From Saprospiraceae bacterium (GTDB lineage Bacteria > Bacteroidota > Bacteroidia > Chitinophagales > Saprospiraceae): a stretch of DNA of 64,000 bases. This document shows positions 4,954-17,857 of this stretch, piece after piece (position 1 is the stretch's first letter; each line of letters opens with the position of its first letter). A model generated the notes under the pieces. That model was not told where the DNA came from and did not search any database. It worked only from the letters and a program-made list of their open reading frames with translations. The translations under genes and the position numbers were made by a program. The stretch is from positions 1 through 64,000 of the forward strand of contig JABAQQ010000011.1 in NCBI GenBank assembly GCA_019187225.1. The letters are read 5' to 3'.

Positions 4954-7900
4954 CTAATTTTTTACAACCGAAACAATCTTGACAAACTCATTTCCAGCAA
5001 TCTTCAAATGAAAGGTCCCGCTCGGCAATTTGTCAAGTAATAAAGTTCGTGAAGCCCCGTCAGGCACAAACGAGTTGTCCTCCAAAACCAATCTACCGAG
5101 GTTGTCGAAAATCTGCACCTGCGTTGTGATGCTTCCTTCACATCGGATGTTGAGAGTACCCTGCGTTGGATTGGGCGAGACAGTTAGTTTGTATTTGCTG
5201 TCAAGGTCAGCGGTAGAAACAATGATTGTTACCACGACAGCATCAGTAGCAGTACAGCCTGAACCGTTAGTTACGGTCACAGAGTAAGTCCCCATCGAAT
5301 TTACTGTAATTGTAGGAGTGTTTGCTCCTGTTGACCAAAGATAGGTCAGCCCCGGTCCTGTTGCATTAAGAACCGCTACCTGTCCCTGTTGCAGAGTAGT
5401 ATCAACACCTAAATTAACTGCTGGAAGGGGATTAACAATCACTTGAGTAGAAACAGGTGCGGAAGCACAGCCCGTCGTTGTTCCTGTCACAGTGTAAGTC
5501 GTTATTGTGGTCGGGTTGACGCTGATGCTGCTGCCCGTCATCCCATTGCTCCATAGGTAAGTCGCTGCTCCACTTGCTGTCAAGGTCGCCGACTGCCCGG
5601 CGCAAATGGTATCGCTACTCACCAATACAATTGGTACAGGATTAACCGTCACTTGGGCGGAAGCGGGCGCAGAGGCACAGCCCGCTGTTGTTCCTGTCAC
5701 GGTGTAAGTTGTTGTGGCGGTCGGGCTGACGGTGATGCTGTTGGTTGTTGCCAAGTTGCTCCACAGGTAAGTCGCTGCTCCGTTCGCTGTCAAGGTCGCT
5801 GACTGCCCGGCGCAAATGGTCGGGCTGTTCACCGTTACGGTAGGAATAGGATTAACCGTCACTGATGTTATTGGTGAAGCATCAGTACAGCCATTGATGT
5901 CAGTGATAGTGACCGAGTATTGCCCTGTGGTTGATACAGGAATATTTTGCGTAGTCGCTCCGTTGCTCCACAAATAGGAACTTGCTGAACTTGCCATAAG
6001 TATCACCGAGCCTCCTTGACAAAATGTAGTCGGCCCGTCTGGAGTGATGGTCGCTGTCGGCAAAGGGAGCACTGTCACAGGGACAGCAGACAAGGAAGCT
6101 GCCGTGCAACCGGCGGCATTGCTCACAGTGACCGAATACTGCCCGGCGGTTGAGACGGTGATACTTTGAGTGGTCGCTCCGTTGCTCCACAAATAGGAAC
6201 TCGCTGCACTTGATGTGAGCATTACTGAACCGCCTTGACAGAATGGAGCAGGCATATTAGGAGTGATGTTCGGCGGAGGAGGTGTGGGGTTTACTATAAC
6301 CGTGACAGCAGTTGATGAAGCTGAGCATCCACTCGCATTACTTACAGTAACCGAGTAATTTCCAGAAGTTGTAACCATGATGCTTTGAGTAGTTGCTCCG
6401 TTGCTCCACAGATAAGAATTTGCTGTACTTGCTTCGAGTATAACTGAACTCCCCTGACATAGTGTAGTCGAGCCAACTACATTGATGGTCGGAGTTGCTA
6501 ATTGGCAAAGTTTTTCAATGAAGGCATCAGAGTAAATAAAAGGTCCACCCATATAAACAGGGGTCAGATAGAAAGTGCCGTTAGTGGGGTCAAAGTCAGC
6601 GTTAATAGAAAAAAAACGACCTGTTGTATAGACATTTCCGCTATCATCAACATCAATGGCCGCTCCTCCATCCTCAATTCCACCTCCCATTCGCGCTGCC
6701 CATACGAAATCTCCTGAAGGATTAAGTTTAGAGATAAAAATATCTTCTTCGCCTGCTGAACCTAATGTATATACCCCATCGCCGGGGTCGAAATCAGCTG
6801 CACCCCAAAAATTTCCAGTTGTATAAATATTCTGATTGGAATCAAGAGTAATAGATACCCCTGCATCGCCAAATCCTCCACCCATTTTTTTAGCCCAAAT
6901 GAAATCTCCATTTGCATCAAGTTTGGACACAAAAATATCAAAATAGCCCAAGCCGCTAGTCATATTATACGTTCCAAAAGGACTAGGGTTAAAATCAACC
7001 GTACCAGTGAAAGTTCCTGTTGTAATAACATTGCTGTTGTCATCCAATGCGATAGAGTTAGATTCCACACTTGAACCACTAAATTGCTTTGCCCAAATAA
7101 AATTTCCAGAAGGGTCAAGTTTGGAAATAAAGGCATTGTTATTAGAGACAGCAGTTAAATTGAAAGTTTGAGGGCCGGGATCAAAATCAACCGTCCCACC
7201 AAAATACCCAGCGGTGTGGACATTTCCACCTGCATCAACAGCTATAGACAAACCTCTTTCGCCGGATGTTCCACTAAATTGTTTCGCCCAAAGAAAATTG
7301 CCAGAGGCATCGAGAGTGCACACAAAAATATCTTCTGAAATACCAGAGGAAGAGAGATTAAAGGTTCCCGGGCCTGGATCAAAATCGGCCGTATATCGAA
7401 AAAAACCTGTTATTGAAATATTTCCAATCGCATTCAATGCGATTGAGAAAGCAATATCAGTACCGCCCCCACCTAATCGTTTTGCCCAAATGAGATCTCC
7501 AGAAGCATTCAACTTAACAACAAATATATCTTCGTTGGCTGCGGCAGTTAGATTGAAAGCCCCGGGGCCGGGGTCAAAATCAGCTGTACCAGAGAACTGT
7601 CCCGTGATGTAAATATTTCCATTAGCATCCAGTGCAATAGCACGTGGCACGTCAGTAGAAGTTCCGCCAAATTGTTTTGCCCAGAGAAAGTTTCCAGAGG
7701 CATTAAGTTTCGACACATAAGCATCTTGGTTACCAAAAGAAGTAAGATTGTAGGTCCCGGTATTGGGGTCATCACTTGGATTAAAATCGGCAGTACTATT
7801 AAACGAGCCTATTGTGAAGACATCTCCGTTTGTATCTACGGCAATTCCGCGACCTATTTCTTCGCTCAGCCCACCCAATTGTTTTGCCCAAAGAAAATTG

Positions 7901-7971
7901 AAATTTTGAGCATTTACATTAATGCTCAAGCCCAAAAAGGCGAGCAATGTGATGGCGGAAAGTTGTTTCAT
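4954..7971 (-). CDS. Secreted SBBP-repeat and Ig-like-repeat protein with type IX sorting domain
   Basis: 1005 residues. The signal peptide MKQLSAITLLAFLGLSINVNAQ is followed, over roughly residues 25-490, by about seven SBBP-type beta-propeller repeats of 60-65 residues (GNFLWAKQFGG, AIALDANGNIYITG, ADFDPGPG, DIFVSKLNASG). Residues about 495-910 hold six or seven Ig-like modules of about 70 residues (CQGGSVMLTSS, YLWSNGATTQSI, GQYSVTVSNAAGC). The last 80 residues (LTVSPNPTQGTLNI to FVKIVSVVKN) are a Por-secretion C-terminal sorting domain, so the protein should cross the outer membrane through T9SS and be anchored or released at the surface. Probable role: adhesion or polymer binding. The Ig modules are very similar at DNA level, a substrate for recombination. 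Confidence 0.92.
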   Translation of the reverse strand: MKQLSAITLLAFLGLSINVNAQNFNFLWAKQLGGLSEEIGRGIAVDTNGDVFTIGSFNSTADFNPSDDPNTGTYNLTSFGNQDAYVSKLNASGNFLWAKQFGGTSTDVPRAIALDANGNIYITGQFSGTADFDPGPGAFNLTAAANEDIFVVKLNASGDLIWAKRLGGGGTDIAFSIALNAIGNISITGFFRYTADFDPGPGTFNLSSSGISEDIFVCTLDASGNFLWAKQFSGTSGERGLSIAVDAGGNVHTAGYFGGTVDFDPGPQTFNLTAVSNNNAFISKLDPSGNFIWAKQFSGSSVESNSIALDDNSNVITTGTFTGTVDFNPSPFGTYNMTSGLGYFDIFVSKLDANGDFIWAKKMGGGFGDAGVSITLDSNQNIYTTGNFWGAADFDPGDGVYTLGSAGEEDIFISKLNPSGDFVWAARMGGGIEDGGAAIDVDDSGNVYTTGRFFSINADFDPTNGTFYLTPVYMGGPFIYSDAFIEKLCQLATPTINVVGSTTLCQGSSVILEASTANSYLWSNGATTQSIMVTTSGNYSVTVSNASGCSASSTAVTVIVNPTPPPPNITPNMPAPFCQGGSVMLTSSAASSYLWSNGATTQSITVSTAGQYSVTVSNAAGCTAASLSAVPVTVLPLPTATITPDGPTTFCQGGSVILMASSASSYLWSNGATTQNIPVSTTGQYSVTITDINGCTDASPITSVTVNPIPTVTVNSPTICAGQSATLTANGAATYLWSNLATTNSITVSPTATTTYTVTGTTAGCASAPASAQVTVNPVPIVLVSSDTICAGQSATLTASGAATYLWSNGMTGSSISVNPTTITTYTVTGTTTGCASAPVSTQVIVNPLPAVNLGVDTTLQQGQVAVLNATGPGLTYLWSTGANTPTITVNSMGTYSVTVTNGSGCTATDAVVVTIIVSTADLDSKYKLTVSPNPTQGTLNIRCEGSITTQVQIFDNLGRLVLEDNSFVPDGASRTLLLDKLPSGTFHLKIAGNEFVKIVSVVKN

Positions 7972-8000
7972 GGTATCAGGTTTTAAATGTTAACTTGCTC

Positions 8001-8046
8001 AAAAAAAACATCCCCTGCTACCGGCGTTTCGGGGTAGTAGGGGATG
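8001..8046 (-). terminator. Rho-independent terminator, minus strand
   Basis: A 14-bp stem (8009-8022 with 8033-8046, one G-T pair) is followed on the minus strand by eight T (8001-8008). It should end transcripts coming from the DUF6876 gene and insulate the start of the large T9SS gene at 7971. Confidence 0.8.
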
Positions 8047-8198
8047 GTGCAAAATTTATTAAGGCTTATTGAAGGCTCAAATTTAACATTCCAAATTCAG
8101 GATTTGCAAGATTTAGACAAAAATATATCTTCAAATTAATCATGTTCCTCCTTGCTAGTCGAAGAGGCAGAGGCCCGAAAGCACCTGCCTTGCTCCGT

Positions 8199-8552
8199 TT
8201 ACCATTCGCCCGGCAACAACAAAGTGTTATTGCTGAACCACAGCGTGAACTCTTTCAGTGGAAAGTCGGTGAACTCCAGTTTGAACCGCTTCACTAAGTT
8301 GTCGTTTCCATCTTCTACCCGGATCACGGCGCTGTTGTTGTCTTTGACCGTGATTTTCCAGGCCTGAAATTCTTCGGCCTTGATCTTTTGATCCAGTTGG
8401 TTGGAAAAGACATAATCAATCAGCCAATAGGCTCCGGCATTTTCGGCCAGGTATTTTACGCCTTCGGTATAGACGAATTTTCCGAAAAGCGGATTCCGAT
8501 AAACAATGTCGCTTCCGGTGAATTGCTTTAGTTCTTCAATCATGTTAGTCAT
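8199..8552 (-). CDS. DUF6876 family protein
   Basis: 117 residues from MTNMIEELKQFTG, with YAENAGAYWLID-like, QAWKITVKDNNSAVI, FKLEFTDFPLKEFTLWF and a terminal GEW. This matches the small DUF6876 family, whose function is unknown and which is frequent on plasmids and phage-like elements. An in-frame ATG at 8594 exists, but the inner ATG follows a purine-rich stretch and begins the conserved part. First gene of the plasmid-like cluster running to about 13.1 kb. Confidence 0.75.
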   Translation of the reverse strand: MTNMIEELKQFTGSDIVYRNPLFGKFVYTEGVKYLAENAGAYWLIDYVFSNQLDQKIKAEEFQAWKITVKDNNSAVIRVEDGNDNLVKRFKLEFTDFPLKEFTLWFSNNTLLLPGEW

Positions 8553-8836
8553 GGGATTTTCCTTTCTAAAATGGGTTTTCGGGTTGTAAGGCAATCCGCA
8601 AGCGGGCTTGCGGTGTTGCGCTTACAAGCCGTTGATTGCCAAAAACCGGGGTGAACGCCGGTCAGGGCTTGGGGCAAAAAAAATACGACCCGCAGGGTGG
8701 AGGTTTTTTTAGAACCAACTCGCCTTGGCCTTGACCGGCGCGAGGGGTGCCCCCTCCTGAAAACAAAAGCGTGGCCGCTTACGGCCTCAAAAGCACAAAG
8801 GGCGGCGGGTGGGGGAAACGAACCGAAAAGGGCGTG
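8553..8836. other. Non-coding stretch of the plasmid-like region
   Basis: About 280 bp between the DUF6876 gene and the terminator at 8837. It is GC-rich and contains short hairpins such as AGGGGTGCCCCCT near 8741-8753. Reading frames here give arginine- and cysteine-rich sequence without protein-like character. No gene, promoter or known RNA was recognised. Confidence 0.4.
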
Positions 8837-8867
8837 AAAAAAACCGGGGCAGGTCACCCTGCCCCGG
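8837..8867 (-). terminator. Strong Rho-independent terminator, minus strand
   Basis: CCGGGGCAGG (8844-8853) pairs perfectly with CCTGCCCCGG (8858-8867) around a 4-nt loop and is followed on the minus strand by seven T. It sits 20 bp after the stop of the small gene at 8887-9096. Confidence 0.85.
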
Positions 8868-8886
8868 CTGGACGGCTTAGTTGCCG

Positions 8887-9530: not shown

Positions 9531-10523
9531 TCAGGATCGGGTAGGTGGAAAAATGGCCAAAGTCTCTGAGTCGAACTCTGCTCTCAAAGCATCGTTCAAG
9601 TCTGAATGTGGTGCAAATTGTTGGCTTCGGACCGTCATCGAGGTCGGAAATTCGGCCAAAAACTTCTCCGTACATTTCTGGCCGGGCGCATTGTTGTCCA
9701 GGAAAGTATCAATATGCTTATATCCGAATTTACGTATCGCGTCCACAGTGCGCTGAAAAGATGAAAGCGAGTGCATGATTATGGCATCCCCTTCAAGCCG
9801 GTCGGCTTTCATAAGCATCAGCAACGACAAAAAGTCCGTCATCCCTTCAAAAACGCTTACTGACTTCCGTTCCAGCCCCTTGCCCCGAATGACGGTAATA
9901 TCCCGCTTGATCAGGGCCGATTTGAATTTATATCGGTCCGAAGCGGTCCGGATTTCGTAGCCGCCACTTTCATTCTCCATGCCGAAAGCGAAAAAGACTT
10001 TGTTGCGGGTTTTGTTGCGATACTGCACCTCCTTCAGGTACAGCCTGGCCAGGTCAGCGGGGATTTTACGTTGCTTTTCCAAGTAATCCAGAATGGCCGG
10101 ATTCCTGATTTCGTGGGCTTCCAAAAATTCCAGTTCGCGCTGCGCTTCCGGTGGAGTCTCCTCCTGCTCGCTCTGCTGTTGAAAGGAGACAAGGCTGGAC
10201 GGATTCCGGGATAGTCCCCCTGCCCTGTCCGAATGTTCGAATAAACTGCCTGGGTACAAGTTTCGCAAAAAAGCCAGAGCCTCTTTGAACTGGATGCCCT
10301 GGTGCCGCATTACGAAGTCAAGGACATTGCCCCCGGCATCTCCGAAGTCGTTCCATATCCATTTACCGCCCAGGAAGGAAGTATGGAAGGACGGTTCTTT
10401 TTCATTCCGGAAGGGCGACCGGTACCAAAGTTCTCGACCGCCTTTAGTCACTTGCACCGGCTCATAACCCAGTCGGGACAGCAAATCAGGAAGATCAATC
10501 TTCTTGGCCTGTTCGCTGTTCAT
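9531..10523 (-). CDS. CHC2-like/Toprim DNA primase of mobile-element type
   Basis: 330 residues. The N-terminal part (YRSPFRNEKEPSFH, then WIWNDFGDAGGNVLDFVM) is the CHC2 fold, but the zinc ligands are replaced (SPFRN instead of CPFHx, and Asn/Asp where Cys is expected), a known variation in element-borne primases. A linker with DLARLYLKEVQYRNK leads to the Toprim domain (SVFEGMTDFLSLL, then DTFLDNNAPGQKC), which holds the Glu and the D-N-x-x-G metal site. It probably primes replication of a plasmid or integrated element. It is preceded by the replication-type helix-turn-helix gene on the same strand. Confidence 0.88.
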   Translation of the reverse strand: MNSEQAKKIDLPDLLSRLGYEPVQVTKGGRELWYRSPFRNEKEPSFHTSFLGGKWIWNDFGDAGGNVLDFVMRHQGIQFKEALAFLRNLYPGSLFEHSDRAGGLSRNPSSLVSFQQQSEQEETPPEAQRELEFLEAHEIRNPAILDYLEKQRKIPADLARLYLKEVQYRNKTRNKVFFAFGMENESGGYEIRTASDRYKFKSALIKRDITVIRGKGLERKSVSVFEGMTDFLSLLMLMKADRLEGDAIIMHSLSSFQRTVDAIRKFGYKHIDTFLDNNAPGQKCTEKFLAEFPTSMTVRSQQFAPHSDLNDALRAEFDSETLAIFPPTRS

Positions 10524-10665
10524 TGCCTTTCAGCCCGTCTCTTTTTTTTCACCAGTAAAAGCCCCCTGCTCTTTTTGGGGTAACTCGGACTAAAACCTTA
10601 CCCCCTGCTTCCATCGAAAGCAATGAACAATCCTCTGAAAATGGGTAAAATGATGACTTATGGAA

Positions 10666-11226
10666 TCAGGAAGGCGGTTTTTCAGGCATGACCAAACCGG
10701 AAGATGCAGCAAAACGCTCCAGGGTGTCCCACAGGCCATCGTCCATACGCCTATTTATATATGTATTACCATTAGTCTCGGCCTTTAATGTCACATCTAA
10801 GTTTTCTGCGGCTTTGCGCTCCGTTTGGGATTTTCGAAACCGCGTGAATCGAATTGCGGGGAAATTCAGCCATACCCGGATGCCGGTGTAGCGGCCAATC
10901 CGGTCTTTGGTGCGATTGTAGTACAGGTAGCCCTCCTCCGCTGCGTCCTGCAAATACCGGAAGATTTGCCTCCGACACCTACCCAAATGCTTAGCCAGGA
11001 TGCCGGTGGTTGTTTCAATCGCGCCTCTCTGCCCTGCCCAGCCGGATATGAGTGTCAGCATCAGCCGGGTCATCGGCATGAGGCGCGGGTTTTTGACGAA
11101 ACATTGTTTAATGGGTTTGACAAAGGTGTTGTTGTCCGGTGGTGCATCCATGTTCTTCCGGCGAGGTTTGGACGGATCACCGCCCTGCCCCACATACGGA
11201 AGCAAAGTCATCATTGGTGCGGTCAT
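10666..11226 (-). CDS. Helix-turn-helix protein resembling plasmid replication regulators
   Basis: Up to 186 residues; the Met at residue 26 (start 11151) is an alternative beginning. The core PRLMPMTRLMLTLISGWAG, followed by IETTTGILAKHLGRCRRQIFRYLQDAAEEGYL and YTGIRVWL, is a winged helix-turn-helix in which GRCRRQIFRYL is the recognition helix. This layout is common in plasmid replication or element control proteins. It lies upstream of the primase on the same strand, so the two may form a replication module. No catalytic motif is visible. Confidence 0.65.
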   Translation of the reverse strand: MTAPMMTLLPYVGQGGDPSKPRRKNMDAPPDNNTFVKPIKQCFVKNPRLMPMTRLMLTLISGWAGQRGAIETTTGILAKHLGRCRRQIFRYLQDAAEEGYLYYNRTKDRIGRYTGIRVWLNFPAIRFTRFRKSQTERKAAENLDVTLKAETNGNTYINRRMDDGLWDTLERFAASSGLVMPEKPPS

Positions 11227-11917
11227 GGCCAGGGGGGGAGAAAGTCCCTGCCCTCCTCCGGGTTGGAATAAATGCAGTTTGATTTTTCATGCTCTGATCA
11301 AAGCGACGATCTCAAAAACCGCCCTTCACCGAGGTTGTGGGAAGGAGCAAAATCAGGATGCAAAAAAGGCTTTGCCCAGTCAGATTTGACTTGCATTCCG
11401 ATTCGCAAAGCGGTACCATTTAAATGGAAAGATTAAAGAGCCCCGCTCAAATTTGAAAAGCCGCAGCGCCAACTGCGGTTTTTTCTATGCCGGTTTTAAT
11501 GGATCGATTGGCTTCCTCCTTTGGGGTTGAAGTTGACATAATGCCTTCCCGCTGAGGGGAAGGGCGGTGATAAAACCGGATTTTAAAGGCCAATCCGAAT
11601 CTATCTCGCTTTACGTTAGCAAAAGTTAAGTGGTTATTCAAGCGTTTAACGGCTTAACGTCAAGCGTAAAGTGAGAAACGAGCATTATCAGCCATTTAGA
11701 AACGCTGAACGGAAAGCAAAACCGGAAAACTTACGGTTACTGACGTCAGGAAACGTCTGTTTCCGTTAAGCTCGGTGCATCGTTTTACGCATCTTGACGG
11801 AAAGAACGATCCTTAACGTCAGGGCAGGGGACTCGCGCTCTTTTTCCCACTTCCCAACCCGCCGGTTTTTACGGTATAGTTTACAGGGATTAACGGTCTT
11901 TTACGGGAGCGATCAGC
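11227..11917. other. Long non-coding control region between divergent plasmid-type genes
   Basis: About 690 bp between the minus-strand HTH gene and the plus-strand KfrA-like gene. It contains the hairpin at 11461-11484 and an imperfect inverted repeat of CTCGCTTTACG with CGTAAAGTGAG (near 11603 and 11664). Many short copies of the words TTAACG and ACGTCA lie between 11600 and 11830. The position and repeat content fit an operator or origin region. No convincing gene was found in it. Confidence 0.45.
11461..11484. terminator. Hairpin terminator, possibly bidirectional
   Basis: CCGCAG (11461-11466) pairs with CTGCGG (11473-11478), followed by six T on the plus strand; AAAAG on the other side gives a shorter T run on the minus strand. 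No gene ends immediately before it on either strand. Confidence 0.5.
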
Positions 11918-12100
11918 ATGTTCATTTCACCAACCGATGCCGTCAAGATGTATGACGTAAGCAAGCCGACTTTGTACAAGGATATGTCGGACGGCACGAT
12001 TTCCTTCACCAAAGACGACCGGGACCGGCGTAAAATTAACGTCGCGGAACTGGACCGCCTTTACGCCAAAAGGCCGGATGCCCCGGAGGGTTTAACGTCA
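11654..12100 (+). repeat. Recurrent TTAACGTCA motif upstream of and inside the KfrA-like gene
   Basis: TTAACGTCA occurs exactly at 11654-11662, 11813-11821 and 12092-12100. Close copies are TGACGTCA at 11741-11748, TTAACGTC at 12036-12043 and TGAACGTCA near 12135. All exact copies are in the same orientation. They may be binding sites for the helix-turn-helix protein encoded here, or iterons. Confidence 0.5.
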
Positions 12101-12541
12101 ACGAACGGAAATAAACTGGACGGCTTGACGGAACTGAACGTCAACGATCAGCACCTTGTCCAGCAGGTAAAATCAATCCGGGAGCAAATCGAGCAATCCC
12201 GAAACCGGGAGATTGAACTTCTGGAAGCGCAGATCGAGCAATTCAAAGACCAGATCGAAAACCTGCACCGGCACCTGGATGAAACGCGGGAAGAGCACCG
12301 GGTTTACGTAAGACTTCTGGAAGATAAACGGGAAGAGCAGGGGGCTAAAACTTCCCAATGGGATCAAAAATTCCAGGCAATGGAGCGGCAATTAAGCACC
12401 CTCCAAGATCAAAACAAACTACTGGTCGCCAGAGAGGAAGAACGGAAAAAACGCATCGAGGAAAGGCGGCGGAAACAGGCAATCGAAAAACGGCTGGAGC
12501 AGGAACGAAAACAGCGTTTTTGGAATCGGCTGTTTGGGTGA
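11918..12541 (+). CDS. KfrA-like plasmid DNA-binding protein with coiled coil
   Basis: 207 residues. Residues 1-50 (MFISPTDAVKMYDVSKPTLY, RRKINVAELDRLYAKR) form a MerR/excisionase-like helix-turn-helix. Residues about 75-200 are a long charged coiled coil (REQIEQSRNREIELLEAQIE and similar) ending in ERKQRFWNRLFG. This organisation, including the basic terminal FW-RLFG, is seen in proteins encoded next to replication genes on small plasmids, where they are thought to assist replication control or partition. The TTAACGTCA motifs ahead of and within the gene suggest autoregulation. Confidence 0.75.
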   Translation: MFISPTDAVKMYDVSKPTLYKDMSDGTISFTKDDRDRRKINVAELDRLYAKRPDAPEGLTSTNGNKLDGLTELNVNDQHLVQQVKSIREQIEQSRNREIELLEAQIEQFKDQIENLHRHLDETREEHRVYVRLLEDKREEQGAKTSQWDQKFQAMERQLSTLQDQNKLLVAREEERKKRIEERRRKQAIEKRLEQERKQRFWNRLFG

Positions 12542-12559
12542 GCGGGCAGGGCAGTGGGC

Positions 12560-12844
12560 TTAGATTTCGATGTCCAGGTCTTCCTTGCGCAGATCGGGGT
12601 TCTTATCCAGGTCTTTATCGGACAAGCCCAGGTCAAAATCTGCATCCATGCCGGGGAACATATCGGCCTTGTCTAATTCCTTTTCGATAACGAATTGCTT
12701 GGCTCCGGCCATGAGACCTTCGAAGTAGGGGAGTTCTACCCCTTCGAGGCCGGGCAGCAACGCTTTTGCCAGTTCCGGCTCGAATTTTTGAAGGAGGTAA
12801 CCGGCGTTGAAGCCTTTGGTGAGCAGTTCTTCATTCATTTCCAT
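12560..12844 (-). CDS. Small acidic conserved hypothetical protein
   Basis: 94 residues (start may be the second Met, MNEELLTKGFNAGYLLQKFE). The opening NAGYLLQKFEPELAKALLPG and LPYFEGLMAGAKQF recall a small conserved Bacteroidota family of unknown function. The tail is strongly acidic (DADFDLGLSDKDLDKNPDLR). It lies 3 bp downstream of the HTH gene on the same strand, so the two are probably cotranscribed. An antitoxin-like or adaptor role is possible but not shown. Confidence 0.65.
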   Translation of the reverse strand: MEMNEELLTKGFNAGYLLQKFEPELAKALLPGLEGVELPYFEGLMAGAKQFVIEKELDKADMFPGMDADFDLGLSDKDLDKNPDLRKEDLDIEI

Positions 12845-12847
12845 GTC

Positions 12848-13141
12848 CTACTTTTCGATATGTTTTTCAATAAATGCGAAGATGGAGGCACGGTTATAAA
12901 GCAGGTGTTTTTCCGTTGTTTTAGAGCGCTGAATGGTCCCCTCCTTACAAAATTTGCTGAGCGTTTCTTCGGAGTTAATTCGCAAAAGACGCATTGCTTC
13001 TTCTTTTTTTACCCATGGGTCATTTTCTATGGCATTCGCTGCCTTAATTTTTTCTACTAGCTTGTCCAACAATTCCTCGACCTCTCTGGCGTTCAGGCAG
13101 ATCAGCTCCGTTTTTTGACTGTTGGGTGGAAGGTCGAACAT
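12848..13141 (-). CDS. Excisionase-like helix-turn-helix protein
   Basis: 97 residues from MFDLPPNSQKTELICLN; an upstream ATG at 13186 would add 15 residues. After a helical segment (REVEELLDKLVEKIK) comes WVKKEEAMRLLRINSEETLSKFCKEG and LYNRASIFAFIEKH, the helix-turn-helix 17/excisionase pattern common on Bacteroidota mobile elements. It heads a two-gene unit with the acidic protein. No integrase partner is present in the window. Confidence 0.72.
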   Translation of the reverse strand: MFDLPPNSQKTELICLNAREVEELLDKLVEKIKAANAIENDPWVKKEEAMRLLRINSEETLSKFCKEGTIQRSKTTEKHLLYNRASIFAFIEKHIEK

Positions 13142-13324
13142 GGAAAGAGAATTCAACGTTTTTATTGATAGGCTAAGGTATGACAATTTTTAAAAGGGAA
13201 GGGAGGGTGAAGTTTCTAAAAGCGCTGTTTTTCTTATGGATTTGAACGGTCATACCGCCGAATCGCCTGCAAAGCCAACATAGTGGGCGACTATAGAAAT
13301 ACAGTGTTTAGAGCGCTTTTATTT

Positions 13325-14416
13325 TCAATGTATCAGTTCTCTAAAAGTTAAGAGACCATTTTTAAATTCAAATTCCACAATCTGCCTTGTTTTGTTTGCG
13401 CCTGTACTTTCTACAAAACTATTGTAAATTCTGCTTTCATCGCCATTCTCAACAAAAACTGTAAATGGAACTTTACTCCGTTTTTCTCTGTCACTATAAA
13501 AATTGACTGAAACTGTATGCTTTCCCATTGGGACAACATCCCAACTCACATTTTCTTGTGGATTGCTTACAAGTGTGCCACCAGCATTTGCATCAACATC
13601 CAACTTGCCAATTGAACCGTTATATTCAAGGATTTTATTTTGATAGTTAATTTTCCTACCTCCATCAGTATTTATATGTAAGTCCAAGTCGTCGGTCGTA
13701 TTCCAAGACAAATTAACTCTTAAACTTCCTCTTTCTCCTTGCAACACTTCCTTACTCAAATTTATCAATCTTGCCAATTCTATTTGTTCCTGTTGCTTAT
13801 TTTCTTCGGGCGAATTTATGTAGGCTCTGTATTGCTTCGCAACCAACTTATCAATAAGTTTATTTCTGCGCGCTTCTGCGGTTTCTACAATTTTAAGGGG
13901 ATCAGTTTTCTCAACCTCTTGTGGTAAAGTTTTTATGTAACGAATAACCTCCTGTAACTCAATGTAAATAAAATACAGTATTGGAATATTCCCTAGTCTC
14001 ATTACACCAAATCTTATATCTTCCTCCTTATATTGTGATTTCGAGAATATTTTCTTATATGGGTATTTATTGGTGTCTCTTTTATACCTTGTTAAATCTC
14101 TATCAAATGAAATCAAGTATTTCGGACTAAATTGCACAATACCATTTTCATTTTTGGAAATTTCATTCATTATTTCTTTGTAAACATAGGTTTTTACAAA
14201 ACTTTCCTGCTCCTTTAAATTTGAAAACTCAACTTCGGTTTTGAGTTTGTCAGGGTCAAGTTCAGAAAATAGGGAAATTCCTCCTTTGTCAGAAAAGAAA
14301 AGTTCGATTATGGGTTTAATAAATTCCTCGTTCACCCTTTTCCGCATTTTCGGGTTAAGAGTAACAACTAGATTAAATGGACTAATTACACTACTTGCAG
14401 AATTATGCTTTATCAT
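13325..14416 (-). CDS. Third component of McrBC-like operon: DUF2135/YfaP-like C-terminal domain
   Basis: 363 residues. Residues 1-225 are a mixed, Lys-rich helical region without recognised motif. Residues about 230-325 (GSLRVNLSWNTTDDLDLHIN, GRKINYQNK, GKLDVDANAGG, ENVSWDVVPMGKHTVSVNFY) match the DUF2135/YfaP beta-sandwich pattern, in which DLDLH and LDVDAN probably bind a divalent metal. No signal peptide is seen, so it acts in the cytoplasm. It overlaps the nuclease gene by 4 bp (ATGA), so translation is coupled. Strongly AT-rich. Its role in the system is unknown; a target- or ligand-recognition subunit is an inference. Confidence 0.75.
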   Translation of the reverse strand: MIKHNSASSVISPFNLVVTLNPKMRKRVNEEFIKPIIELFFSDKGGISLFSELDPDKLKTEVEFSNLKEQESFVKTYVYKEIMNEISKNENGIVQFSPKYLISFDRDLTRYKRDTNKYPYKKIFSKSQYKEEDIRFGVMRLGNIPILYFIYIELQEVIRYIKTLPQEVEKTDPLKIVETAEARRNKLIDKLVAKQYRAYINSPEENKQQEQIELARLINLSKEVLQGERGSLRVNLSWNTTDDLDLHINTDGGRKINYQNKILEYNGSIGKLDVDANAGGTLVSNPQENVSWDVVPMGKHTVSVNFYSDREKRSKVPFTVFVENGDESRIYNSFVESTGANKTRQIVEFEFKNGLLTFRELIH

Positions 14417-16029
14417 GCCAATGATTGTTTTAAATAAAATTCTTGTAGCGTTTTAAAATTAATTTTGACCACTTTTATCTGACTTTTGTTGAAGTATGGG
14501 TTGTTTATCACTTCAACTTGCTCCAATACTGAGGGGTCACTTGAAAAGAAGGGAATCCAAAATTCGCTTTGGGTTTTGGCTGACCAATTTTGCTGAACAG
14601 TCCATTCATAAACCAATTGTTTATGGATGTCTTCTTTCACTTTGTTTTCACCTTTTTCATCAATGTAAAAAGGCGAATATGTTTCATAATCCGATATTCT
14701 CATATATTTGTAATCAATAATCTGATAGGGGGCTTCTGAATACAAATCTTCAAGTTCTTCGTTTGCGACTTTTAAGAATTGCCGAAAATCATTTTCGTAC
14801 ATAAAAAAATATTTCCTTCCTGGCTGTAAGTAATTTTCTTCTATTTGAACATATCTTTCATAAGCATAGAATATCTTGGGATAAGAATTTCGCAGGTTAG
14901 GGTAATCTAAAAAAACAATACTATGTGCCCTCTTTTGGTATTTTATTATTTGCTTTGACGAAAAAATATTGCTAATACTCTTTGCAATTGGCTCTAAGAC
15001 TAAATCAGGTTTTAACTTTCTGACAACTTGCAAATTATTAATCCTTAAATCAAATGGATTAAGAAAATCTTTATAGAGTTCATTTGCGATTAATGTTCCG
15101 TCAACATCAGCATAGATTACCCGGCCTCTATATTTGGTTTCATTGATGGCATATGTTTGACACATATCTTCCCAAACATCATAAAAACTACTAAAACCCC
15201 AATAGATACCGTCATTATCCTCATGTCTTTCGCCATACAAAAACGCCTCAATCGCTTCGTAAAAATGCCAGTAGTCCTCGTCTTTATATGTAGTTTCAAT
15301 ATCAATTTCATCAAGTTTCGCTCTTAAAATATCTACTGTCTCGGCAAATGTTTTCTCTCCAAATAATTTACTATCTGGTTGTAAATGTTCCTCCTTAAAT
15401 TGGTCAGCAAGTTCAATTGCTTTGATTGTGATAGTTTCAACTTCTTCTAATTCTGCTTTTATCTCTGCATAAATGAAGCAAAACAGTTGAAGAATAGGAG
15501 GGCTACTTTTTACAATCACATTTTTAGCAATATTCATCTCATCGAGATAAATTACATCATCTTCAAGATAAATGGCTTGATGTAAATACCTATGAAGTTT
15601 AGAATAATCTATCTCATGGCTCCTTACTTGTTTTTTTTCTAATGCAGAAATTCTTAACTCGTCGTAACCCGCAATTATCTTCTCTATTGAATTAAGTTTT
15701 CCATAAAAAACAGATTGTTCTTTATTTTCGTTGATAAAACTAAACCCATTTTCATTTTCAATAATACCGTCTCTGTCGATTGTTATATCTTCTTCGTTTA
15801 ATTCCTCTTGTTTTTTTTGTAGATAGGTTTTAAAGGTTCGATACATCTTAAAAAAGAAACCTTTTACTTGGTCGAAATCCCCTTCATCAAAGTCTTTGAA
15901 ACCTAATGGCAGCCAAAACTCTAGTTGCTCATCATCTTGTCGGCTTCTTTGGATGCCGACAAATGAGTAGTTTCGACGACCGTGTTCTTCGTCATTTTTT
16001 ATAATTTTTATGTTATTGAGGTCAAACAT
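14413..16029 (-). CDS. McrC/LlaJI-like PD-(D/E)XK endonuclease subunit
   Basis: 538 residues. Residues 1-270 are an AT-rich, acidic helical region that may contact the motor subunit. The catalytic region shows SFYDVWEDMC (281-290), KLKPDLVLEP (338-347), YQIIDYKYM (435-443) and DIHKQLVYEW (467-476). These are the helical Glu, PD, D-x-K and Q-x-x-Y elements of PD-(D/E)XK nucleases of the McrC/LlaJI type. It overlaps the AAA gene by 8 bp and the downstream gene by 4 bp. Expected role: cleavage of foreign or modified DNA after translocation by the motor. The nuclease call is from motifs only. Confidence 0.78.
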   Translation of the reverse strand: MFDLNNIKIIKNDEEHGRRNYSFVGIQRSRQDDEQLEFWLPLGFKDFDEGDFDQVKGFFFKMYRTFKTYLQKKQEELNEEDITIDRDGIIENENGFSFINENKEQSVFYGKLNSIEKIIAGYDELRISALEKKQVRSHEIDYSKLHRYLHQAIYLEDDVIYLDEMNIAKNVIVKSSPPILQLFCFIYAEIKAELEEVETITIKAIELADQFKEEHLQPDSKLFGEKTFAETVDILRAKLDEIDIETTYKDEDYWHFYEAIEAFLYGERHEDNDGIYWGFSSFYDVWEDMCQTYAINETKYRGRVIYADVDGTLIANELYKDFLNPFDLRINNLQVVRKLKPDLVLEPIAKSISNIFSSKQIIKYQKRAHSIVFLDYPNLRNSYPKIFYAYERYVQIEENYLQPGRKYFFMYENDFRQFLKVANEELEDLYSEAPYQIIDYKYMRISDYETYSPFYIDEKGENKVKEDIHKQLVYEWTVQQNWSAKTQSEFWIPFFSSDPSVLEQVEVINNPYFNKSQIKVVKINFKTLQEFYLKQSLA

Positions 16030-17056
16030 TGAATTCTAAAATTCTCTGAACAAACTTTTTGACTACGGCTTGCTGAGTAAACTGCCCGAAAGTGACCAAA
16101 TCTCTCTCGTTCATCTCTAATAAATCTGTCAAAGGTTTTCGATTGGTATTGAAAACACTATCCCATACAAAGAACATCAACTTATTCTTTATGTGTTCAT
16201 GGTTAATTTCATGCTCGTTGATGAAGAGGTAACCAATCTGCTTATCTTCTATCTTTCTAACTGTTTTGTAGTGGCTACGAATGAAACCGTTTAATCTATC
16301 CACGAAATCATTCCATGCACAAATGTTTTGACCATATAGGTTAACTTGTCTGCCTGTTACGACACTTCTTTGATTATCATCTTCAATGTTCACAAACTCC
16401 CAATCCCAACGGCGTTTGAAAGCGTTATCCATAAAGTAGATTGAGTTGTCCGAGGTGTTCATGGTAGCGAGGAGTGAAAGATTGGGGGGTATGAAAATTC
16501 GTTTCTGTTTTAAGTCCATATTCAAGCAATCCACACGATTTTGAAATACTAAGTGATCCTGCACTTCATGGGTTTCTCCTGGAAACTTATATTCGTACTT
16601 GTTATCGGCAAGTGCTTTAAATTTTACGCCAATTAATTCAAGGATTGTAAGTATTTCAAGTTCTGTCACGTTGATAAAATATGATGACCAGCCATTGGGC
16701 TCTCGGTCAAGTAATTGAAATACTGTCCCAAAAATTGCAGCGGAATTACCCCTATTAATTTCATCAATAACTAACACCACGTTGTCGGGGCTATCAACAT
16801 TATCGAGAATATTCTTGTAGGCTTGCGATAGAGCAATCAAAAAATGCCCTGGATGAAATTTATATTCAACTCTACCTGCTTTTGTAAAAGGCACGAGTTT
16901 GCCCACAAAGTCTCCATATGTGTATTCTGGATGGAATACTGTTTTTATTATATTCGAATTGCTGGTTATCAACAATTGATTTGGAATGATGCTATTGACA
17001 ATCCTATGGCTTTTGCCTGTACCTGGGCTTCCGAAGAGAATTTTTTGAATGGGCAT
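16022..17056 (-). CDS. McrB-like AAA+ NTPase
   Basis: 344 residues. Walker A is FGSPGTGKS (8-16). The McrB-type insert is FHPEYTYGDFVGKL (41-54). Walker B is VVLVIDEINRGN (93-104), with sensor 1 at ATMNTSDNS (197-205) followed by NAFKRRWDWEF. McrB normally has MNTADRS, so the Arg after the Asp is replaced by Asn here. There is no N-terminal DNA-binding domain, unlike E. coli McrB, so target recognition must come from another subunit. It is the first gene of a three-gene, translationally coupled, AT-rich operon. It should form the ring motor that drives the nuclease. Confidence 0.88.
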   Translation of the reverse strand: MPIQKILFGSPGTGKSHRIVNSIIPNQLLITSNSNIIKTVFHPEYTYGDFVGKLVPFTKAGRVEYKFHPGHFLIALSQAYKNILDNVDSPDNVVLVIDEINRGNSAAIFGTVFQLLDREPNGWSSYFINVTELEILTILELIGVKFKALADNKYEYKFPGETHEVQDHLVFQNRVDCLNMDLKQKRIFIPPNLSLLATMNTSDNSIYFMDNAFKRRWDWEFVNIEDDNQRSVVTGRQVNLYGQNICAWNDFVDRLNGFIRSHYKTVRKIEDKQIGYLFINEHEINHEHIKNKLMFFVWDSVFNTNRKPLTDLLEMNERDLVTFGQFTQQAVVKKFVQRILEFNV

Positions 17057-17435
17057 GAATTCTTTATTGTGTATTTAAAATTGATGAAACGCAAAAAAAA
17101 ACGACTACAAATATGCCGTTGAATTTGGAATGGCTGTACCTTTTTAACCCAAATTGTTTTACATTTTATCGTTTCTTTTGTTTTATTTTTCTGCACAGCA
17201 CAGCTATTTGCCACATTTGTGTCTGCAAATTTGTAGCCAAAAATGCGTAAGTTTTACTTATTTCTGACAATCCCTTTTATGAGTTTTTGTTGAAAGGCTG
17301 TGCTTATGCCGTTCTATTTTAGCCATAACTAGAGCGGCTCATTTAGTAAGTATCTAAATCTACTCCCTTTTTAGGTTCTCTAAAATTTGAATATAAAATA
17401 TTTTCCCTACTTTTGCCCAAAATAACTAATACCAC
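17057..17435. other. Divergent intergenic region between the McrB-like operon and the XRE regulator
   Basis: About 380 bp, very AT-rich. It holds the promoter of the XRE gene near its right end and must also hold the leftward promoter of the three-gene operon, for which no clear TAnnTTTG box was found. A regulator acting here could control both directions. Confidence 0.5.
17386..17415 (+). promoter_or_regulatory. Bacteroidota-type promoter of the XRE regulator
   Basis: TTTG at 17386-17389 (-33 box) and TACTTTTG at 17408-17415 (-7 box, consensus TAnnTTTG) are 18 nt apart. The ATG of the regulator follows 20 nt after the -7 box. Confidence 0.75.
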
Positions 17436-17696
17436 ATGTCACAAAGAACAGAAATAAACCGCATCCGAGCTGTCCTTCAAGAGCAAGGGCGCACCCAAAC
17501 CTGGCTGGCCAACAGGCTGGGCTTGGCCTTTGCGACCGTAAACGGCTGGTGCAACAACCGGGGACAACCTTATCTGACGGATTTGGTGCGGGCAGCGGAG
17601 CTGCTGGAAGTAGCACCGGCGGACTTAATCGTGGATGGCACAAAAAAAGAAAGAGGCCTGACGGCTAACCATCAGACCTCTTCCATCTTTGCATAA
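17436..17696 (+). CDS. XRE-family helix-turn-helix regulator
   Basis: 86 residues. Residues 8-60 (IRAVLQEQGRTQTWLANRL, FATVNGWCNNRGQPYL, DLVRAAELLEVAPADLI) are a Cro/C1-type helix-turn-helix. Such small XRE proteins often control restriction-type genes. It is divergent from the McrB-like operon and has a clear promoter. The last residues (from about KKERGLTANHQ) are read through the hairpin terminator of the opposite tRNA gene, so the C-terminus looks improvised at a junction. Confidence 0.85.
   Translation: MSQRTEINRIRAVLQEQGRTQTWLANRLGLAFATVNGWCNNRGQPYLTDLVRAAELLEVAPADLIVDGTKKERGLTANHQTSSIFA
17642..17682 (-). terminator. Terminator of tRNA-Asp
   Basis: On the minus strand AAGAGG-CTGA pairs with TCAG-CCTCTT (17651-17661 with 17672-17682, each arm with one bulge) and is followed by TCTTTTTTTG. 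It lies about 100 nt after the tRNA-Asp 3' end and overlaps the end of the XRE coding sequence. Confidence 0.75.
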
Positions 17697-17783
17697 ACCT
17701 TGAAAACGACTGCTGAAATGACTGCTGGCGGCAACCAGAAAGTCATAATTCATTGAAAATCAATCGCATATTCAAAGCCTTTG

Positions 17784-17857
17784 CGGTCCGGACGGGACTC
17801 GAACCCGCGACCTCCGCCGTGACAGGGCGGCATTCTAACCGACTGAACTACCGAACC
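17784..17857 (-). tRNA. tRNA-Asp(GTC)
   Basis: The minus strand folds as a 74-nt cloverleaf. The acceptor stem is GGTTCGG with CCGGACC and discriminator G. The D arm contains GTTCAGTCGGTTAGAAT. The anticodon arm is CCGCCCTGTCACGGCGG with anticodon GTC, and the T arm contains GGTTCGAGTCC. The 3' CCA is not encoded. Confidence 0.95.

What the first reader, a model, noticed from the sequence alone, without database searches (positions are those of the whole stretch)
13325..17056. Three-gene McrBC-like operon with a DUF2135/YfaP-like third subunit
The three genes overlap by 8 and 4 bp. They encode an McrB-like motor without DNA-binding domain, a PD-(D/E)XK nuclease with PD, D-x-K and Q-x-x-Y motifs, and a protein with a beta-sandwich domain of DUF2135 type. 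Classic McrBC has two subunits with target recognition on McrB. Here that task has no obvious holder other than the third protein or the N-terminal half of the nuclease. The operon is AT-rich, next to plasmid-type genes and a divergent XRE regulator. I infer an antiphage or anti-plasmid system that is not one of the textbook types.
Basis: partly seen in the sequence, partly recalled or inferred. Interest (0 to 1): 0.85.

Follow-up and report, generated by a model that had tools for sequence, protein, structure and literature searches.

The report
Three-gene McrBC-like restriction cassette
A mobile three-gene cassette pairs a DNA-motor protein and a probable DNA-cutting protein of the McrBC/LlaJI kind with a third protein of an unnamed family; it is probably a phage or plasmid defence system and a new variant of a known kind.

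Summary
Three minus-strand genes encode an McrB-type AAA+ motor without an N-terminal domain, a LlaJI/McrC-type nuclease (by motifs), and a third protein. Relatives occur in Bacteroidota, Cyanobacteria and Gammaproteobacteria. The third protein has two parts: its N-terminal ~165 residues ("T") are the conserved subunit, which no library searched names; the YfaP-like tail is an add-on in one subclade. T stays with motor and nuclease: in 339 cyanobacterial genomes all 11 T copies adjoin or are fused to them. No similar methyltransferase was found near T-type loci with 12 queries. Three-gene layouts are not new: LlaI and BsuMI have short motors in three-ORF cassettes (PMC1459862, passages). T shows no detectable similarity to the third protein of the LlaI-type cassette I read. 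Best reading: a methyltransferase-free, GTP-driven restriction nuclease in which T, on the nuclease, replaces the lost recognition domain. T's role is inferred. Structure prediction failed and was then switched off, so the folds of nuclease and T are untested. A T-less sister group exists. New variant of a known kind.

The parts
16022..17056 (-). B: McrB/LlaJI-R1-type AAA+ motor, 344 aa, no N-terminal DNA-binding domain; Walker A, Walker B, MNTSDNS (NxxD) signature
14413..16029 (-). C: LlaJI-R2/McrC-type nuclease by motifs and distant profile similarity, 538 aa; PD 341-342, D-x-K 439-441, Q-x-x-Y from 471
13325..14416 (-). Third protein, 363 aa: residues 1-167 = conserved T subunit; about 168-222 linker; 223-362 = YfaP-like tail
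17436..17696 (+). Divergent XRE-type (HTH_3) gene, 86 aa; possible regulator of the cassette (inferred)
17783..17857 (-). tRNA-Asp(gtc); similarity to same-genus relatives stops at its 3' end: probable island boundary (inferred)

Best explanation
An island-borne, methyltransferase-free restriction cassette of the McrBC/LlaJI superfamily with three subunits. B forms a GTP-fuelled AAA+ ring. C docks on the ring, activates it and carries the PD-(D/E)xK nuclease. T, encoded directly after C and sometimes fused to C's C-terminus, sits on the nuclease side and stands in for the missing N-terminal domain of B: it recognises or loads foreign DNA, or licenses cleavage. The YfaP-like tail of the window's subclade adds a further binding surface. 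Shown here: homology of B; motifs and distant homology of C; linkage and natural fusion of T; absence of B's N-terminal domain; no adjacent methyltransferase with the queries used; horizontal spread. Inferred from McrBC and LlaJI: ring, GTP use, translocation, cleavage. Inferred and untested: T's role, restriction of phage or plasmid DNA, dependence on modified bases.
For: B: 31% identity to the motor half of LlaJI R1 (E 5e-38); McrB structures found by profile. C: RE_LlaJI matches 2 of 42 rows of A5 (best 2.7e-8); profile of 39 C proteins against eight R2-type proteins 82% (E 1e-5). T: in 43 of 84 loci, 40 of them with C; in L052, L057 and L078 B and T are found but not C. T-anchored search: 11 copies in 10 of 339 cyanobacterial genomes; 9 re-read with flanks, 2 are loci L029 and L021 already read; all 11 adjoin or are fused to C, with B upstream. 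At least 4 of the 11 (L029, L021, L026 and the Geminocystis plasmid L013) were already among the 84 loci, and L026 and L029 are rows of the query. C-T fusions: L053, L054, L056; L121, L123, L124. Methyltransferases: 12 queries against 993 neighbours of 84 loci hit 3 loci, none with T. PMC1459862 (abstract and passages) makes R1 the sole specificity subunit of LlaJI. Mobility: the tree mixes phyla; low G+C; boundary at tRNA-Asp.
Against: The window's C matches no Pfam, NCBIfam or PADLOC family, shows no pairwise similarity to LlaJI R2 by BLASTP (E 0.26), and a first profile comparison with one R2 failed (0.5%); adding the LlaI-type C lowered 82% to 70%. A 35-row sister group has B, and C in 32 of 35, but no T, so T is not needed by every motor-nuclease pair of this branch. 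T's pI is not clearly basic (median 6.8, range 4.8-9.5, 42 proteins; 9.0 in the window). N6_Mtase domains occur in 2 of 137 neighbours.
Confidence: 0.6

Rival explanations
1. T is not a recognition subunit but an activator, assembly factor or brake on C, and target choice lies in C itself, in its long N-terminal region or in the variable segment between VWEDMC and D-x-K. (Overlaps in part with the best explanation, so the odds do not add up to 1.)
For: The T-less sister systems have a longer C, mostly about 610-625 aa against about 515-565, and the stretch from WEDM to the end has a median of 332 residues (26 proteins) against 239 (32 proteins). C-T fusions fit a regulator as well as a specificity subunit. 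T is not clearly basic.
Against: B lacks the domain that holds specificity in LlaJI R1 and McrB; T is kept in every cassette of its clade in which B and C are complete and the contig runs on.
Confidence: 0.3
2. The restriction half of a Type II system whose methyltransferase lies elsewhere in the genome (LlaI/BsuMI-like), hence modification-blocked rather than modification-dependent.
For: Of 12 related LlaJI- or LlaI-type loci that I read on plasmids and phages, 11 have a methyltransferase gene or fragments of one beside the restriction genes; L128, read with 3-kb flanks, has none listed.
Against: No similar methyltransferase among the neighbours of any T-type locus, window included (contigs are often short); the cassette moves across phyla with varied neighbours. 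The whole own genome was not searched for a methyltransferase.
Confidence: 0.15
3. Not a DNA-restriction system but an RNA- or protein-targeting defence, as predicted for CoCoNuTs.
For: Some McrBC relatives are predicted to target RNA (PMC11090510, abstract).
Against: B has NxxD, not the NxD motif that marks the CoCoNuT clade (section 6), and C keeps its nuclease motifs.
Confidence: 0.06

Closest known systems
LlaI-type cassette on Lactococcus plasmid pUCCL629C (L139), and BsuMI (literature only)
   Same: Short motor of 337/343 aa without N-terminal domain in a three-ORF restriction cassette; in L139 the order is motor, LlaJI-family nuclease, third gene. That L139 is LlaI is inferred from the 337-aa motor and the AbiA neighbour.
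   Different: The third protein of L139 (413 aa) shows no similarity to T or the tail; methylase fragments lie upstream. BsuMI's sequences were not examined.
LlaJI (pNP40, L127)
   Same: Motor half 31% identical; distant profile similarity of the nuclease.
   Different: R1 has a long N-terminal specificity half; two cytosine methyltransferases; no third restriction gene.
McrBC (E. coli, T. gammatolerans)
   Same: McrB-type AAA+ motor with NxxD, PD-(D/E)xK-type partner next door, no adjacent methyltransferase found.
   Different: No N-terminal DNA-binding domain; signature ends DNS, not DRS; extra T subunit.
YfaP / DUF2135
   Same: The tail profile finds E. coli YfaP (E 6.4e-8).
   Different: Only a tail, in one subclade; Pfam PF09906 does not match, and the PF09906 protein of L098 is not listed by the tail profile.

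Membership tests
McrBC (Type IV) | McrB-type AAA+ motor with Walker A/B and NxxD signature | tested here: met
   variant MNTSDNS in place of MNxxDRS (consensus from PMC7680126, passages)
McrBC (Type IV) | Adjacent PD-(D/E)xK nuclease partner | tested here: inconclusive
   motifs and gene order met; fold not tested, jobs failed
McrBC (Type IV) | N-terminal DNA-binding domain on the motor | tested here: not met
   AAA+ match starts at residue 6 of 344; the match to LlaJI R1 covers only R1 residues 268-547
McrBC (Type IV) | GTP-dependent cleavage of modified DNA | not testable with these tools
   needs biochemistry
LlaJI | R2-type nuclease (RE_LlaJI) | tested here: inconclusive
   PF09563 in 2 of 42 rows of A5, not in the window protein; hhalign 82%, 70% with the LlaI-type C added, 0.5% against one R2
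LlaJI | Cognate methyltransferases beside the restriction genes | tested here: not met
   12 queries, no hit among neighbours of T-type loci
LlaI/BsuMI three-ORF cassettes | Motor of about 340 aa lacking the N-terminal domain, in a three-gene cassette | tested here: met
   344 aa, order B-C-third as in L139
LlaI/BsuMI three-ORF cassettes | Third protein homologous to that of the LlaI-type cassette | tested here: not met
   hmmsearch E 0.22, hhalign 0.1%
LlaI/BsuMI three-ORF cassettes | Third protein homologous to BsuMI's | not tested
   BsuMI sequences not fetched
CoCoNuT | NxD variant of the McrB signature | tested here: not met
   NxxD
DUF2135 (PF09906) | Match to the curated profile | tested here: not met
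   but the tail profile finds YfaP

The most novel reading that the evidence does not exclude
T founds a new family of target-recognition subunits that ride on the nuclease of an McrBC-type machine, so that specificity has moved from the N-terminus of the motor to a detachable third protein, with an exchangeable YfaP-like tail as a second reader.
Probability: 0.4. Interest if true: 0.68.

Novelty: new variant of a known kind. Interest (0 to 1): 0.5.

Why it matters
In the McrBC relatives described in the passages I read, the N-terminal part of the motor reads the DNA. Here that part is gone, no methyltransferase was found next door, and a small conserved protein travels with the nuclease, even fused to it. 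If T reads the target, recognition in this superfamily is modular in trans, and the cassette is a compact system in which to test how a restriction motor is aimed.

Tried and rejected
T as a relative of LlaJI R1 or R2, of the LlaI-type third protein or of C's nuclease region: no support (reversed-T control). Weak T matches near residues 475-580 of several T-less C proteins (E 0.1 and worse) were not confirmed by profile comparison (1.3%; 0.97%). The C profile also gave second matches inside the T part of the three fusions (L121, L123, L124); direct profile comparison of T with C's nuclease region gave nothing, and I did not follow it further. Viral contigs: three scans found nothing. PDB: the T profile gave one chance-level row, the alignment with tails none. 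No repeat of 13 bases or more of the tRNA region within the window. PADLOC hits among neighbours (for example mad2 in 6 of 137) rest on one threshold and are not taken as systems. That DUF2135 defines the third subunit was dropped. Literature: searches listed no paper that I recognised as describing this trio; I saw listings only, except for passages or sections of PMC11090510, PMC7680126, PMC1459862 and PMC3874153. Most subscription papers are not held; LlaI's paper was not held.
Full report
What is there. Three minus-strand genes overlap by 8 and 4 bp at 13325-17056. Frames in shuffled DNA reach at most 155 aa (200 shuffles). The operon is 34.1% G+C in a 50.1% window. It lies left of a tRNA-Asp gene (17783-17857). 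In a DNA search of 60 genomes, own genome included, no listed match outside the own genome covers the operon; weaker rows were not listed. Many same-genus matches of the tRNA block run past the 5' end of the tRNA but start at query base 6781-6784, window 17780-17783, its 3' end; one (G710) runs from 6781 to 8876. One relative (G722) matches window 17391-17798, the XRE gene and the tRNA end. This fits an island at a tRNA 3' end; ordinary drift of intergenic DNA could also end the similarity there, and no repeat of 13 bases or more was found in the window.

The motor. B has Walker A and B and MNTSDNS. Across 84 loci MNTSDNS was found in 39 and MNTSDSS in 5, and most T-less relatives read INTSDES. 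The profile of four B proteins finds T. gammatolerans McrB (E 1.9e-22) and E. coli McrB (E 1.2e-11) among solved structures. BLASTP with LlaJI R1 gives 31% over the motor half only (E 5e-38). PADLOC names a Type II restriction enzyme (E 3.4e-34), and NCBIfam gives an McrB match far below its cut-off.

The nuclease. C shows PD, D-x-K and Q-x-x-Y in the order known for McrC and LlaJI R2. In the window the D of PD lies 97 residues before the D of D-x-K; in cyanobacterial relatives where a regular expression found PD it lies about 13-18 residues before. Pfam's RE_LlaJI matches 2 of 42 rows of A5, which holds 31 nuclease or fusion rows and 11 T rows. The profile of 39 C proteins against eight R2-type proteins, one of them unnamed in its record, gives 82%. 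This fell to 70% when the LlaI-type C was added, and single sequences gave nothing. I call C a distant LlaJI-R2-type nuclease; the fold is untested.

The third protein. Small third proteins of Nostoc and Geminocystis plasmids (189 and 171 aa) align with the first ~165 residues of the window's and stop there. In 84 loci (window, three plasmids, the 80 best of 345 relatives) a profile for this part, T, is found in 43 and a profile for the tail in 8. Of the 43, 40 also have C; L052, L057 and L078 do not. T is fused to the end of C in L053, L054 and L056, and in three further copies (L121, L123, L124). In a tree of 82 B proteins (L078 and L084 dropped as short) 41 of 42 T or tail rows fall in one 45-row group. 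The exception is L080, on a long branch. A 35-row cyanobacterial group has no T, and C in 32 of 35. All 8 tail rows fall in one 11-row clade (98/91). The other three there are L019 (cut by its contig end), L022 and L032. Within the 45-row group T is missing in L024, L034 and L050, cut by contig ends, and in L055, which also lacks C. The tree mixes Bacteroidota, Cyanobacteria and Pseudomonadota; some rows are MAGs and may be misassigned.

Does T occur alone? A T search of 339 cyanobacterial genomes gave 11 copies in 10 genomes. Nine were re-read with flanks: all lie directly after or in C, with B upstream; one B lies in two parts 2.3 kb apart (L118). The other two are the loci L029 and L021. 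In 296 genomes of the window's phylum C was found only in the own genome. The third protein matched in 8 of 296, and the 7 besides the own match only within residues 216-348, the tail side.

Comparison with known systems. PMC1459862 (abstract and passages) says that LlaIB and BsuMIB are shorter than R1.LlaJI, align over their whole length and lie in cassettes of three ORFs; it assigns specificity to R1. The LlaI-type cassette L139 has 337, 464 and 413 aa in the same order, methylase fragments before it and AbiA after it. Its motor matches the B profile (E 6.3e-63); its C only at chance level; its third protein matches neither T nor the tail. PMC7680126 (passages) lists N-terminal domains of McrB relatives (DUF3578, YTH, B3); the window's B has no room for any. 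The CoCoNuT census (PMC11090510: outline with abstract, passages, section 6) has no occurrence of 'LlaJI' or 'third gene' and defers several NxxD branches to a later paper, so the present family may lie inside that census.

Methyltransferases. Twelve MTase proteins from LlaJI-type loci, searched against 993 proteins around 84 loci, hit L066, L070 and L074, none with T. A Pfam scan of 137 neighbours (up to two either side, 130 aa or longer, drawn from 43 loci of the T group, 4 of them without T) found N6_Mtase in 2 of 137; only the 25 commonest of 212 families are shown, so rarer ones may be hidden. The window's whole genome was not searched for a methyltransferase. Of 12 related LlaJI- or LlaI-type loci, 11 have a methyltransferase gene or fragments.

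Mechanism. Knowledge of McrBC and LlaJI supports a GTP-driven ring with a nuclease. The missing N-terminal domain and the linked, fusible T make T the likeliest holder of recognition or loading, but the evidence is genetic linkage only. A regulator role is the main rival, helped by the T-less sister group and by T's unremarkable charge.

Noticed in passing
L012:20387-25563 (Nostoc sp. NIES-3756 plasmid): Genes annotated DpdA and tRNA-guanine transglycosylase with helicases (7-deazaguanine DNA-modification type) lie about 6 kb from the cassette.
   Followed up: no
L058-L097, for example L075:1613-3454: A 35-row cyanobacterial sister group has B and a usually ~615-aa C but no detectable T; its motor signature mostly reads INTSDES.
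   Followed up: partly
L139:7432-8673: The third protein of the LlaI-type cassette carries HECVH, which by eye looks like an IrrE-type HExxH metallopeptidase motif (recalled, no call).
   Followed up: no
L016:5107-12120; L014, L015, L017: The YfaP-like tail domain occurs in plasmid proteins of 420-690 aa, in Cereibacter just before an SrfB/Virul_Fac gene pair.
   Followed up: partly
L011:1-16910 (Hymenobacter canadensis plasmid): Around the cassette lie a DruA-annotated gene, an FtsK/SpoIIIE protein, an integrase and an AbiEii-type gene.
   Followed up: partly
window 9531-13186: A DnaG/Toprim-like primase gene and HTH_17 genes left of the cassette suggest a replicating or integrating element.
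   Followed up: partly
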